DNA of 64,000 nucleotides from Aquirhabdus parva. Lineage in GTDB: Bacteria > Pseudomonadota > Gammaproteobacteria > Pseudomonadales > Moraxellaceae. A model generated the notes under the pieces. That model worked only from the letters and a program-made list of their open reading frames with translations. It had not been told where the DNA came from and did no database searches. Shown one piece after another: positions 4,705 through 9,481 of this stretch (positions within the stretch are counted from its first letter, which is position 1; every line of letters starts with the position of its first letter). The DNA lies in assembly GCF_003351745.1 (NCBI RefSeq), contig NZ_CP031222.1, positions 1,470,207-1,534,206 of the forward strand. The letters are read 5' to 3'. The translations under genes and the position numbers were made by a program.

Positions 4705-4727
4705 CCTTGGTGTCTGACCTCCCCAGT

Positions 4728-4763
4728 AATGCTACTGTGATTTATCCAGTAGCATTATTTTTA
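4728..4763 (+). terminator. Intrinsic terminator after the YcxB-like gene
   Basis: AATGCTACTG (4728-4737) pairs perfectly with CAGTAGCATT (4747-4756) across a 9-base loop, followed by a T-rich run. Confidence 0.85.
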
Positions 4764-5065
4764 TTAAATGGTAAAATGTGATGTATTGTGCATTATTTAC
4801 ATGTGAAGTGAAAAATATATTCGTTTTTTTATTATATTTACTAAATGTTGATCAGTTAAATTTCTAATTTAATATGCCTACTTGATCTCAAAAAGGCTAA
4901 CTTTTCTATTTCATTTTTATTTATAGTATTGATAATAAATAACTTTTTATTTTTTTTAATTCGATTGCTGATATTGGGAAAATTTCAAAAAATATGCTAA
5001 GTTGCTAAAGTTATCAATGTAATAACAACATTGATACTAAATTAGGCTTTAGGGATGCATAAGGA
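4764..5065. other. AT-rich upstream region of the first protease gene
   Basis: Non-coding and very AT-rich with several poly-T runs. No confident -35/-10 pair could be assigned. The only clear structure is the dyad at 5012-5036. A purine-rich AAGGA directly abuts the protease ATG and AGGG lies about 11 bases upstream of it. Confidence 0.6.
5012..5036 (+). promoter_or_regulatory. Perfect 9-bp dyad upstream of the first protease gene
   Basis: TATCAATGT (5012-5020) and ACATTGATA (5028-5036) are exact inverted repeats separated by AATAACA. The dyad ends 29 bases before the start codon. It has no T-tract, so it is not a terminator; it could be an operator or a 5' UTR hairpin. No similar dyad was seen upstream of the second protease. 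Confidence 0.4.
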
Positions 5066-7087
5066 ATGAAAAAATCCACTTTTATTTTAACGTCGTTATT
5101 GTGCAGTATAACGACTAGTCTATATGCGGCACCGCTTTTTTCACCTGCTTTTTCTAGTAATAGTGATGCCCTTCTTCAGCCTTCCCAATCTAAGCAGTTG
5201 GCCACGGTATTAAATGATCCTGCTGTAAAAAACTATAGCTTGGTTCGAACCGACCTTAATGCGCTGACTCAACCCAATGTTGGTGTAAATCTTACCGCTA
5301 GTGATGCTTCAACGACAACGAGTCAAACGACGATTAAGCGGTCGGCTAACAATTATTCATGGTTTGGTAAAACGGTAGATGGTAATACCATCATCAGTGT
5401 GAATGGTTCTGCTGTTGAAGGCATTATTCATAAAGGATCTAAAGTATTTCGACTCCGTACTTTAGGGGATGGGTTACAAGCCCTGACAGAGATAGACCAG
5501 TCCAAATTTCCAAGTGATGAGCCGCTCGGCATTAAGATGCCCTCTGGCAAAGTCGCTAAATCAGCCGCCTCGCAATCATCAGATGCGACAAGCCGCTCTT
5601 CAGATGCAGTTGTAACGCCTACTGTTGCGGCTGATCCTAATCCTGTCGTAGATGTGCTTGTGGGTTATACAGCTGCGGTCAAGGCATTGTATAACAACAG
5701 TGATGCGGACGTTTTAGCACATATTCAGTTAGCCATTGATGATGCAAACCAAACATATATTAATAGTGCCGTGAACTCTCAACTCCGCTTAGTCGACACC
5801 CAAGCAGTTGATTATGTCGAAACGACAGATCTGGGTGTCAGCTTGGCTGCTTGGAAGGGTACGACTGATGGTCAAATGGACAACATCCATGCTCGTTTAA
5901 ATACGGTGGGTGCTGATATTGCGATCTTAATTACCAGTAAGTCGGGTGCAAATTCTTGTGGTCTGGCATACGTTGGTGCAAACTCTACAGCGTATGCATT
6001 TGGCATCGTTGAGGATTCTTGCGCGATTGGTAATCACTCATTTGCCCATGAGATTGGACATCTCTATGGTGCTTTACATGATGTTGCCAATTCTAGTGCA
6101 GGAGGGATACCTTATGCGCATGGTTTCCATTATAAGAGTGAGTGGCGTACGGTTATGGCGTATCCTGCTGCATGCCCAGGACAATATAGCTGCCCGCGTA
6201 TTCCTTATTGGTCTAGTCCAGATATCCTCCACTCGACCATTGCTGATGGGAATGTTCCCATGGGAACAGTCGCCGTTGAGAATAATGCTAAGGTTTTGAC
6301 TGATAATGCAGGTGTTCTGCAAGGTTTGCGTGCGCATAAGAATTGGAACTGTTTTAATACGCCAAATATCAATCAGCCTTACTTCTTGATCCAAGGCACG
6401 ACCTTATGTCCATTGGATACGATGACCTCACCGAATGGTCAATATAAACTGACGGTCCAAGAGAACGGCAACTTAGTGATCAAGAATAGTTCGAATGTCC
6501 AAATTTGGACCTCGAATACCACGCCGATTGATCCACTGGTTCCAAAAACAGAAATACGTGCAGTACTTGAGCCGACAGGAAATTTTGCAATTTATGATCG
6601 TTCCGATGCTACCAAATGGGCAGCTGGAACATCAGTAACCACACCATTGTTATTGCTCCAAGACGATGGCAATCTAGCGGTTTACTCCGTACTCGTACCA
6701 TTTAGTGCAGGCTTCTCAGACCCATCTGCAGGCACCAGTGCCACAGGTCCTTACGTGATCGCTCCGGGTCAAACATTGACATCAGGTCAAAGTGGAACTT
6801 CAGGAAATGGTAAATTCAAGATTACCATGCAAGCAGGTGGGAATCTTGTTGTTACTCGTGTATCCAACTCGGCGGTAATCTTCAGTAGTGGTACATCAGG
6901 TGCAGGGAATCGTGCAGTGATGCAGCAGGATGGGAATTTTGTAGTTTACTCACCGAAAAATGTGCCGCTATGGAATACGAAAACTGCTGGCAAAAAAGGA
7001 GCGTACGCGCTGCTTCAAGATGATGGTAACTTTGTCGTTTACTCTTTAACTCCTAAATGGAGTTGGAAAACTGGGGCAATTAATTAA
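5066..7087 (+). CDS. Secreted metzincin metalloprotease with C-terminal bulb-type lectin repeats (copy 1)
   Basis: 673 residues. A Sec signal peptide (about 1-21, ending SLYA) is followed by a propeptide-like region to about 185. The catalytic domain (about 190-415) carries the zinc motif HEIGHLYGALHD near 328 and a Met-turn RTVMAY about 35 residues later, the hallmarks of reprolysin-like metzincins. From about 438 to the end are bulb-type (D-mannose-binding) lectin modules with QDDGNLAVY, QQDGNFVVY and QDDGNFVVY mannose motifs. The product is probably exported and anchored to or targeted at glycans. The C-terminal 255 residues are almost identical to those of the next gene. Substrate unknown; type II secretion is plausible because gspL and gspM occur in this window. 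Confidence 0.88.
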   Translation: MKKSTFILTSLLCSITTSLYAAPLFSPAFSSNSDALLQPSQSKQLATVLNDPAVKNYSLVRTDLNALTQPNVGVNLTASDASTTTSQTTIKRSANNYSWFGKTVDGNTIISVNGSAVEGIIHKGSKVFRLRTLGDGLQALTEIDQSKFPSDEPLGIKMPSGKVAKSAASQSSDATSRSSDAVVTPTVAADPNPVVDVLVGYTAAVKALYNNSDADVLAHIQLAIDDANQTYINSAVNSQLRLVDTQAVDYVETTDLGVSLAAWKGTTDGQMDNIHARLNTVGADIAILITSKSGANSCGLAYVGANSTAYAFGIVEDSCAIGNHSFAHEIGHLYGALHDVANSSAGGIPYAHGFHYKSEWRTVMAYPAACPGQYSCPRIPYWSSPDILHSTIADGNVPMGTVAVENNAKVLTDNAGVLQGLRAHKNWNCFNTPNINQPYFLIQGTTLCPLDTMTSPNGQYKLTVQENGNLVIKNSSNVQIWTSNTTPIDPLVPKTEIRAVLEPTGNFAIYDRSDATKWAAGTSVTTPLLLLQDDGNLAVYSVLVPFSAGFSDPSAGTSATGPYVIAPGQTLTSGQSGTSGNGKFKITMQAGGNLVVTRVSNSAVIFSSGTSGAGNRAVMQQDGNFVVYSPKNVPLWNTKTAGKKGAYALLQDDGNFVVYSLTPKWSWKTGAIN

Positions 7088-7132
7088 TTTTGTTTTTGTT
7101 ATAAAAACACCCTCTATTTAGAGGGTGTTTTT
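6323..7132 (+). repeat. Near-identical 810-bp direct repeat, copy 1 (lectin module plus terminator)
   Basis: Matches 8634-9443 over 810 bp with a single difference seen by eye (G at 7076, A at 9387, changing Ala to Thr near the C-terminus). The repeat begins inside the coding sequence, just after the protease domain, and ends at the last T of the terminator. Sequence on either side differs clearly. Confidence 0.95.
7103..7132 (+). terminator. Intrinsic terminator of protease copy 1
   Basis: A 14-bp perfect stem, AAAAACACCCTCTA with its reverse complement around a TT loop, ending in a T-tract. The same terminator follows copy 2. Confidence 0.92.
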
Positions 7133-7376
7133 ATACGTCTCGTTGTCCATCGTGGTATAGGGTGACCTAGGTTTTTTTTATCGGTTTGACAATCGGATTA
7201 TTTGTGTCAATTGGTTCGCGTATTTAAAAAAATAATATAAATAAGTTAGTTATAAAGAATTAATGATATATTTTTGATTGAGTTTTTGCCATAATCTTCA
7301 TACATGCGCTACTGATTGGTCAAAGGAAGACATCGCGATTTATCAGTGTTTTGAGCTAACGTGGAGATATTCAAGG

Positions 7377-9398
7377 ATGACAAAGATCAAATTTTTACTT
7401 ACCGCATTTGCTTGTTGTTTTGCAACAGGGGTGTATGCGGCACCATTATTTTCCCCCGCCTTTCCAAGTAATGCGGATGCATTACTGATACCCAGTCAAA
7501 AAGCACAGTTGGCGAAGGTTCTAGGTGATCCTGGGGTTAAGAGTTATCAGTTCGTTAAAATGAATCTCAAAACATTAGACCAAGCAAGTGTGGACATCAA
7601 TCCAACCCAAGCTGATGTCTTGCCTGCAACCAACTACATGACAGTCAAACGCTCACAAACAAACTATTCATGGTTTGCAAAGACAAGTGAGGGCAGTACG
7701 ATACTCAGTGTAAATGGCGATGCTGTCGAGGGCATTATTCATCAAGGCCCTAACGTCTATCGTGTTCAATCACTCGGCAAAGATTTACAGGTCATTACGG
7801 AGATTGATCAATCGAAATTTCCTGAACGCTATGATCGACCTGATACCGTTCAACCTGATAAAGCACTCAATCAAAAATTAGTGTCCTCTCCCAGTACCTC
7901 ATTAGATGTTTTGCCAGCAAGTTCAAAAGACACCAAGCCTGCTACTGCGCAAGATTCCGTGCCGATAGTAGATGCAACACTCGTTTATACTCCAGAAGTT
8001 GAAGCGCGTTACACTGATAAAGCTGCGTTGATGGCACATCTACAACTAATGATCGACGATGCCAATCAGCATTATGCTAACAGTGTTATTAATGCACAAA
8101 TGCGTTTAGTGGATGTCATTCGTGTTGATTATGTTGGCACAACGGATCTGGGGCAAAGTTTAAATGATCTCAGAGGCACCACAGATGGTAGCTTAGATGA
8201 TATTCATGCAAGAGTCAGTAAAACAGGGACGGATATCACGGTTTTGATCACCAGTAAAGTGGGATCAAATCTTTGTGGTATTGCGTATGTGGGTGTTAAA
8301 AATACTGCGTATGCATTTGGTGTTGTTGATGATGGTTGTTCTATATCCAATCATACATTTGCTCACGAAACAGGACACATCTATGGCGCAGGACATGATA
8401 TCGCAAACAATTCTGCTGCAGGGGTTGCGCATGGCTTATTAGTCCCTGGTAACTGGCGTACTGTGATGGCTTATGCATGTACTTCAGGTGTCTGTCCAAA
8501 AATCCCTTACTATTCAAATCCAGATATTACGCACTCTGCTACCATTGATGGTGTCAAAAAGGATATTCCGATTGGAACTGTCGCTCAGGAAAATAACGCA
8601 AAAATTCTGAATGACAATGCGGCGACTTTAGCGGGTTTGCGTGCGCATAAGAATTGGAACTGTTTTAATACGCCAAATATCAATCAGCCTTACTTCTTGA
8701 TCCAAGGCACGACCTTATGTCCATTGGATACGATGACCTCACCGAATGGTCAATATAAACTGACGGTCCAAGAGAACGGCAACTTAGTGATCAAGAATAG
8801 TTCGAATGTCCAAATTTGGACCTCGAATACCACGCCGATTGATCCACTGGTTCCAAAAACAGAAATACGTGCAGTACTTGAGCCGACAGGAAATTTTGCA
8901 ATTTATGATCGTTCCGATGCTACCAAATGGGCAGCTGGAACATCAGTAACCACACCATTGTTATTGCTCCAAGACGATGGCAATCTAGCGGTTTACTCCG
9001 TACTCGTACCATTTAGTGCAGGCTTCTCAGACCCATCTGCAGGCACCAGTGCCACAGGTCCTTACGTGATCGCTCCGGGTCAAACATTGACATCAGGTCA
9101 AAGTGGAACTTCAGGAAATGGTAAATTCAAGATTACCATGCAAGCAGGTGGGAATCTTGTTGTTACTCGTGTATCCAACTCGGCGGTAATCTTCAGTAGT
9201 GGTACATCAGGTGCAGGGAATCGTGCAGTGATGCAGCAGGATGGGAATTTTGTAGTTTACTCACCGAAAAATGTGCCGCTATGGAATACGAAAACTGCTG
9301 GCAAAAAAGGAGCGTACGCGCTGCTTCAAGATGATGGTAACTTTGTCGTTTACTCTTTAACTCCTAAATGGAGTTGGAAAACTGGGACAATTAATTAA
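7377..9398 (+). CDS. Secreted metzincin metalloprotease with C-terminal bulb-type lectin repeats (copy 2)
   Basis: 673 residues from the chosen ATG, exactly the length of copy 1. This ATG precedes a clear signal peptide (KFLLTAFACCFATGVYA) and has GGAG about 10 bases upstream; the frame also opens 99 bases earlier, but that stretch is not signal-like. The mature N-terminus APLFSPAFPSN mirrors copy 1. The zinc motif is HETGHIYGAGHD near residue 330, with Met-turn RTVMAY. The protease half is clearly diverged from copy 1, while the lectin half is nearly invariant. The two proteases may share a binding target but differ in cleavage specificity (inference). Confidence 0.88.
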   Translation: MTKIKFLLTAFACCFATGVYAAPLFSPAFPSNADALLIPSQKAQLAKVLGDPGVKSYQFVKMNLKTLDQASVDINPTQADVLPATNYMTVKRSQTNYSWFAKTSEGSTILSVNGDAVEGIIHQGPNVYRVQSLGKDLQVITEIDQSKFPERYDRPDTVQPDKALNQKLVSSPSTSLDVLPASSKDTKPATAQDSVPIVDATLVYTPEVEARYTDKAALMAHLQLMIDDANQHYANSVINAQMRLVDVIRVDYVGTTDLGQSLNDLRGTTDGSLDDIHARVSKTGTDITVLITSKVGSNLCGIAYVGVKNTAYAFGVVDDGCSISNHTFAHETGHIYGAGHDIANNSAAGVAHGLLVPGNWRTVMAYACTSGVCPKIPYYSNPDITHSATIDGVKKDIPIGTVAQENNAKILNDNAATLAGLRAHKNWNCFNTPNINQPYFLIQGTTLCPLDTMTSPNGQYKLTVQENGNLVIKNSSNVQIWTSNTTPIDPLVPKTEIRAVLEPTGNFAIYDRSDATKWAAGTSVTTPLLLLQDDGNLAVYSVLVPFSAGFSDPSAGTSATGPYVIAPGQTLTSGQSGTSGNGKFKITMQAGGNLVVTRVSNSAVIFSSGTSGAGNRAVMQQDGNFVVYSPKNVPLWNTKTAGKKGAYALLQDDGNFVVYSLTPKWSWKTGTIN

Positions 9399-9443
9399 TT
9401 TTGTTTTTGTTATAAAAACACCCTCTATTTAGAGGGTGTTTTT
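8634..9443 (+). repeat. Near-identical 810-bp direct repeat, copy 2 (lectin module plus terminator)
   Basis: Second copy of the 6323-7132 segment, offset by 2311 bp, with one mismatch at 9387. It covers the last ~255 codons of the second protease, its stop codon and its terminator. Confidence 0.95.
9414..9443 (+). terminator. Intrinsic terminator of protease copy 2
   Basis: Identical to the 30-base hairpin at 7103-7132. Being palindromic, it also faces the 3' end of metK, which is transcribed towards it. Confidence 0.92.
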
Positions 9444-9481
9444 GCAAGATAGAAGCTTGGGGGGGAGATAGCGTCAGATTT

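What the first reader, a model, noticed from the sequence alone, without database searches (positions are those of the whole stretch)
5066..9443. Tandem protease-lectin genes with a homogenised 3' half including the terminator
Two adjacent secreted metzincins have clearly diverged protease halves but share 810 bp (6323-7132 and 8634-9443) with one mismatch by eye, ending at the last base of identical terminators. Even synonymous positions match, so this is recent gene conversion or unequal recombination rather than purifying selection. Both proteins are 673 residues long. It looks like a swappable catalytic head on a fixed mannose-lectin targeting tail.
Basis: partly seen in the sequence, partly recalled or inferred. 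Interest (0 to 1): 0.7.

Follow-up and report, generated by a model that had tools for sequence, protein, structure and literature searches.

The report
Twin proteases sharing one lectin tail
Two neighbouring bacterial genes encode secreted protein-cutting enzymes whose cutting halves diverged long ago but whose sugar-binding tails became identical recently by recombination, which points to a reusable targeting module related to a bacterial toxin but probably no longer a toxin.

Summary
Two 673-aa genes (A, 5066-7087; B, 7377-9398) share 810 bp (6323-7132 = 8634-9443) with one mismatch (7076/9387, Ala/Thr). Fourfold sites differ at 0 of 136 in the tail and 73 of 105 in the heads, with an abrupt step. 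The genome is one 3.78-Mb contig, so an assembly artefact is unlikely, though no reads were available. Recent recombination is secure; its exact form (tail conversion, tail capture or head replacement) is not.

Each gene is a secreted M12B metzincin (Mep72-like catalytic domain) joined to a tandem B-lectin tail of the putidacin/pyocin-L (LlpA) type. The shared unit starts where the protease domain ends and stops at the last T of the terminator. The same genome holds a tailless sister protease ending at that junction, and the tail type (55%) on an unrelated DUF3472/ricin-B protein; an S53 protease elsewhere carries a similar tail. The tail lacks the C-terminal hairpin LlpA needs to kill, and a key sugar motif is degenerate. 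I read it as a glycan anchor for proteases, not a bacteriocin. The pair lies at one breakpoint of a ~196-kb inversion. New variant of a known kind; moderate interest.

The parts
5066..7087 (+). Gene A: secreted metzincin protease with tandem B-lectin tail, 673 aa
   Evidence: ORF; Pfam Reprolysin_4 4.8e-18 and B_lectin 6.8e-13
7377..9398 (+). Gene B: same architecture, 673 aa
   Evidence: ORF from ATG 7377; Pfam Reprolysin_5 5.3e-18 and B_lectin 9.5e-13
5066..6322 (+). Diverged head of A: signal peptide (by inspection), propeptide (to about residue 193), catalytic domain
   Evidence: 58% nt identity to B head, synonymous sites saturated
7377..8633 (+). Diverged head of B
6047..6082 (+). Zinc motif of A, HEIGHLYGALHD (residues 328-339)
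8364..8399 (+). Zinc motif of B, HETGHIYGAGHD (residues 330-341)
6155..6163 (+). Met-turn of A (MAY)
8466..8474 (+). Met-turn of B (MAY)
6323..7132 (+). Tail-plus-terminator unit, copy 1 (810 bp)
   Evidence: One mismatch to copy 2, 0 of 136 fourfold differences
8634..9443 (+). Tail-plus-terminator unit, copy 2 (810 bp)
6386..6745 (+). N-terminal B-lectin domain of A (approximate limits); no fully intact QxDxNxVxY motif
   Evidence: Motifs QENGNLVIK, EPTGNFAIY, QDDGNLAVY; fold of the tail
6752..7069 (+). C-terminal B-lectin domain of A (approximate limits); motifs intact at residues 620 and 651, first motif degenerate
8697..9056 (+). N-terminal B-lectin domain of B (approximate limits)
   Evidence: Same sequence as copy 1
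9063..9380 (+). C-terminal B-lectin domain of B (approximate limits)
   Evidence: Same sequence as copy 1
7103..7132 (.). Bidirectional hairpin terminator of A, last part of the identical tract
   Evidence: Same 30 bases as 9414-9443
9414..9443 (.). Bidirectional hairpin terminator of B, also placed to end the convergent metK transcript
   Evidence: Fold of 9385-9450 -21.8 kcal/mol, z -5.0
7076..7076 (+). Only mismatch in the tract (partner 9387), Ala in A and Thr in B
4705..9481 (.). Inversion breakpoint interval between the DUF gene after polA and metK; holds both protease genes
   Evidence: In same-genus genomes metK is followed by secA and polA-DUF by folE; here secA and folE adjoin at C1:1276981-1280507

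Best explanation
A and B are paralogous Sec-dependent, probably type-II-secreted metzincins, made as zymogens with a propeptide. After the catalytic domain each carries a tandem beta-prism lectin of the LlpA/pyocin-L type. Shown: a recent recombination event left both genes with the same 810-bp unit, which runs from the end of the protease domain through the lectin to the last base of the terminator. Inferred: the lectin tail anchors the protease to a glycan (own matrix, LPS or another surface) and so chooses where it cuts, while the two diverged heads cleave different substrates at the same place, as Mep72 couples a metzincin to carbohydrate-binding modules. Inferred: the copies arose by gene conversion or by capture of the tail by a tailless gene like the third paralogue. 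As direct repeats spaced 2311 bp they should let RecA delete or amplify the B unit (7133-9443), which is one complete gene with its upstream region and terminator.
For: Synonymous step from saturation to zero at the domain edge. Active-site motifs intact in both heads. Mep72 model matches the heads at 101 and 87 bits, putidacin model matches the tails at 132 and 129 bits. Tail aligns to pyocin L1 and L2 (3e-25) and putidacin L1 (7e-22) in the PDB. Predicted tail fold (pLDDT 82) matches pyocin L1 over 205 residues, Z 15.5, and plant B-lectins, Z 16-17. Tailless paralogue L018 ends at the junction. Same tail type on a DUF3472/ricin-B head, L020. A Pro-kumamolisin (S53-type) protein with an LlpA-like tail, 39% identical, in another genome. 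Three secretins, one GspD-like by inspection. Mep72 is exported by type II secretion and its autoproteolysis is slowed by alginate (PMC4334185).
Against: No binding or protease data exist. The glycan ligand is unknown, and only two of six sugar motifs are intact. No second strain of the species could be examined, so the event cannot be polarised and the swap history is untested. Head structure could not be modelled reliably (pLDDT 45 for the whole protein). The GspD assignment was by eye, not by a family model.
Confidence: 0.7

Rival explanations
1. Protease-armed lectin-like bacteriocin: the LlpA-type tail docks on LPS and BamA of related competitors and the metzincin head cuts surface proteins to kill or disarm them.
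For: The tail is closest to LlpA/pyocin L among solved structures and NCBIfam models. As in LlpA, motif decay is worst in the N-domain (PMC3585409). Albusin B joins a B-lectin to a peptidase M15 domain and is a bacteriocin (PMC6240691).
Against: The C-terminal hairpin that LlpA needs for activity is missing, and the C-domain's first sugar motif, intact in pyocin L1, is degenerate here (PMC3585409). The putidacin curated cut-off is not reached (132 of 275 bits). The same tail type sits on a DUF3472/ricin-B protein and on an S53-type protease.
Confidence: 0.12
2. Head exchange: a whole-gene tandem duplication was followed by replacement of one head from another strain or gene, or an allele with another head integrated through the shared tail, so that the head and not the tail was swapped.
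For: The result would be the same 810-bp near-perfect repeat with diverged heads and unrelated upstream regions.
Against: Heads A and B are each other's nearest relatives in the genome (56%, against 50% and 43% to L018) and have GC3 like neighbouring genes, so no outside donor is indicated; this does not exclude another strain as donor.
Confidence: 0.25
3. Assembly or polishing artefact that copied one tail over the other.
For: Near-perfect 810-bp repeats are a known hazard for assembly; reads were not available.
Against: Single 3.78-Mb contig, unique flanks on both sides of each copy, one mismatch between copies, both frames open.
Confidence: 0.03

Closest known systems
Mep72 of Pseudomonas aeruginosa (PA2783), biofilm metzincin
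   Same: Secreted metzincin with a matching catalytic domain, followed by two tandem carbohydrate-binding domains
   Different: Mep72's tail is a pair of CBMs, not B-lectins; whole-protein score is far below the Mep72 cut-off (101 of 645 bits); no bamI-like ORF lies between A and B
LlpA / putidacin L1 / pyocin L1 lectin-like bacteriocins
   Same: Tandem B-lectin (MMBL) domains; motifs better kept in the C-domain
   Different: Fused to a protease; lacks the C-terminal hairpin; different set of intact sugar motifs (second and third of the C-domain, where pyocin L1 keeps first and second)
Albusin B of Ruminococcus albus
   Same: B-lectin combined with a peptidase-family domain
   Different: Single B-lectin N-terminal to a peptidase M15 domain, Gram-positive (PMC6240691)
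S53-type (Pro-kumamolisin) protein with tandem LlpA-like tail, L124:1919-4396
   Same: Secreted-protease propeptide with a tandem B-lectin tail 39% identical to this one
   Different: Unrelated protease family; five of six sugar motifs intact

Membership tests
Metzincin, M12B reprolysin type | HExxHxxGxxHD zinc motif | tested here: met
   A 328-339, B 330-341, L018 338-349
Metzincin, M12B reprolysin type | Met-turn downstream of the zinc motif | tested here: met
   VMAY, M at residue 364, in A and B
Metzincin, M12B reprolysin type | Pfam reprolysin score above gathering cut-off | tested here: met
   66 and 66.4 bits against cut-offs 22 and 27
Mep72 (NF052434) | Whole-protein score above the curated cut-off of 645 bits | tested here: not met
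   101 and 87 bits, catalytic domain only
Mep72 (NF052434) | Type II secretion | tested here: inconclusive
   Signal-peptide-like N-terminus by inspection; secretins present, one GspD-like by eye
LlpA lectin-like bacteriocin | Tandem B-lectin domains | tested here: met
   PDB alignments and predicted fold
LlpA lectin-like bacteriocin | C-terminal hairpin extension needed for activity | tested here: not met
   Protein ends 14 residues after the last motif and aligns only to residue 229 of the 256-residue pyocin L2 chain; requirement from PMC3585409
LlpA lectin-like bacteriocin | First sugar motif of the C-domain intact | tested here: not met
   QAGGNLVVT at 589, where pyocin L1 has QGDGNLVIY
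LlpA lectin-like bacteriocin | NF033557 score above the curated cut-off of 275 bits | tested here: not met
   132 and 129 bits
LlpA lectin-like bacteriocin | Kills related bacteria through BamA and LPS | not testable with these tools
   Needs purified protein and indicator strains
Recent gene conversion or recombination between paralogues | Abrupt loss of synonymous divergence over a bounded tract | tested here: met
   73 of 105 against 0 of 136 fourfold differences, sharp step
Recent gene conversion or recombination between paralogues | Donor and recipient identified | not tested
   No second strain of the species was available; no homologue in 3 same-genus genomes

The most novel reading that the evidence does not exclude
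The tail with its terminator is a mobile targeting cassette: tailless secreted enzymes gain it as one unit ending at the transcript end, so that a set of proteases and other enzymes is aimed at one glycan, and the 2311-bp-spaced repeat lets the cell amplify or delete the B unit. A stronger form is that these are protease-armed relatives of lectin bacteriocins.
Probability: 0.15. Interest if true: 0.65.

Novelty: new variant of a known kind. Interest (0 to 1): 0.42.

Why it matters
LlpA-type lectin tandems are studied mainly as stand-alone bacteriocins. Here the same tandem is a tail on two protease families and on a third, unrelated protein, which suggests the tandem can serve as an aiming module apart from killing and gives a simple way to test what it binds. 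The locus also captures tail sharing soon after the event, with the untailed relative in the same genome as a natural control.

Tried and rejected
Purifying selection on the tail: rejected, no synonymous change in about 182 synonymous sites while the heads are saturated. Terminator travelling with the tail over long times: not supported, L020 has a different terminator. Shared upstream region as a trace of tandem duplication: A, B and L018 upstream regions score no better than shuffled sequence. Foreign origin by composition: GC and GC3 of heads and tail are like neighbouring genes. Direction of transfer from metK's terminator: relatives have a hairpin at the same place, but the similarity is no more than terminators usually share; left undecided. 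The consensus scan missed the terminator because its T-run pairs with the A-run; folding found it. Full-length structure model too poor to use. Relatives of the tail were not found at 1e-10 in sampled order (294) and class (369) genomes other than the window's own; 5 others of 398 phylum genomes had weaker ones. Stand-alone Pseudomonas LlpA genes are known, so these samples are not exhaustive. Literature searches found no paper on protease/MMBL fusions in the held library, which is weak evidence as most subscription papers are not held.

Full report
Observation. The two ORFs and the repeat are as described. Gene A runs 5066-7087 and gene B 7377-9398, each 673 aa. The shared tract is 6323-7132 and 8634-9443 with one mismatch at 7076/9387. 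Fourfold sites differ at 73 of 105 in the heads and 0 of 136 in the tail; about 182 synonymous sites put the 95% upper limit of tail dS near 0.016. Third-position identity is flat at 30-53% up to the junction and 100% after it. So the tails share a far more recent ancestor than the heads. The genome is a single contig and each copy has unique flanks. Reads could not be checked.

Anatomy. Pfam gives M12B reprolysin domains and B_lectin. NCBIfam places the catalytic part nearest Mep72 and the tail nearest putidacin L1, both under their curated cut-offs. Zinc motif and Met-turn are intact in both heads. PDB sequence search aligns the tail to pyocin L1 and L2 and putidacin L1. A model of the tail (pLDDT 82) matches pyocin L1 over 205 residues at Z 15.5 (rmsd 6.4) and plant B-lectins at Z 16-17. 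The tract begins at the Gly codon of GLR, the end of the protease domain, and ends with the last T of a hairpin terminator (-21.8 kcal/mol, z -5.0).

Family in the genome. A third metzincin, L018 (434 aa), has no tail and ends at the same junction. A 615-aa protein, L020, carries a DUF3472 and ricin-B head with the same tail type at 55%. Two short ORFs hold single B-lectin domains. Heads A and B are 56% identical; L018 is 50% to A and 43% to B. No homologue was found in three same-genus genomes.

Beyond the genome. Tails of this kind were absent at 1e-10 from sampled order (294) and class (369) genomes apart from the window's own, and present in 5 others of 398 phylum genomes. One of these, L124, has a Pro-kumamolisin (S53-type) propeptide and a tandem tail 39% identical. 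Related metzincin heads in the order carry other C-terminal modules: PKD, DUF11, beta-propeller-like repeats.

Locus history. In same-genus genomes metK is followed by secA (three genomes), and polA-DUF by folE; in this genome secA and folE adjoin at C1:1276981-1280507 and the protease pair lies between DUF and metK. The simplest reading is an inversion of about 196 kb in this lineage with the pair at one breakpoint. Whether the pair came before, with or after the inversion is unknown. Upstream regions of A, B and L018 show no similarity.

Mechanism. Shown: recent recombination, modular layout, intact catalytic motifs, lectin fold (predicted, with clear sequence homology). Inferred: export by the type II route (secretins present), propeptide removal, glycan anchoring by the tail, different substrates for the two heads. 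Mep72 is the working precedent: a metzincin with tandem carbohydrate-binding domains, exported by type II secretion (PMC4334185). The bacteriocin reading is weakened because LlpA needs its C-terminal hairpin for activity, which is missing here, and because the first C-domain sugar motif, intact in pyocin L1, is degenerate (PMC3585409).

What stays open. Conversion between two tailed genes, capture of a tail by a tailless gene, and replacement of a head all leave this pattern; other strains of the species are needed. The sharp boundary at the domain edge and the flat divergence before it fit a single event, and heads at 58% nt identity would be poor partners for homologous exchange, which mildly favours capture of the tail over conversion of an equally old tail (inference). 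The ligand of the tail and the substrates of the heads are unknown.

Noticed in passing
L034:3422-6250, also L035, L036 (viral contigs): L034 is a phage minor tail protein L (PF05100) with an inserted run of B-lectin domains; L035 and L036 look alike by eye. A lectin module in a phage tail tip.
   Followed up: partly
Hits H21-H24 in Pseudomonas phage records: Four Pseudomonas aeruginosa phage records hold sequence about 30-33% identical to the LlpA-like tail; three are annotated as hypothetical protein and one has no annotated gene.
   Followed up: no
L124:1919-4396: S53-type protease propeptide with a tandem LlpA-like lectin tail, five of six sugar motifs intact.
   Followed up: partly
window 4705-9481 and G000:C1:1279729-1279814: Ends of a ~196-kb inversion relative to same-genus genomes.
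   Followed up: partly
L021:1489-1857 and L022:1474-1860: Stand-alone single B-lectin ORFs of 122 and 128 aa without an evident signal peptide.
   Followed up: no
L012, L017 (same family, G014): L012 is an alpha/beta hydrolase with a weak B-lectin match below the Pfam cut-off; L017 is a second place in the same contig matching the tail.
   Followed up: no
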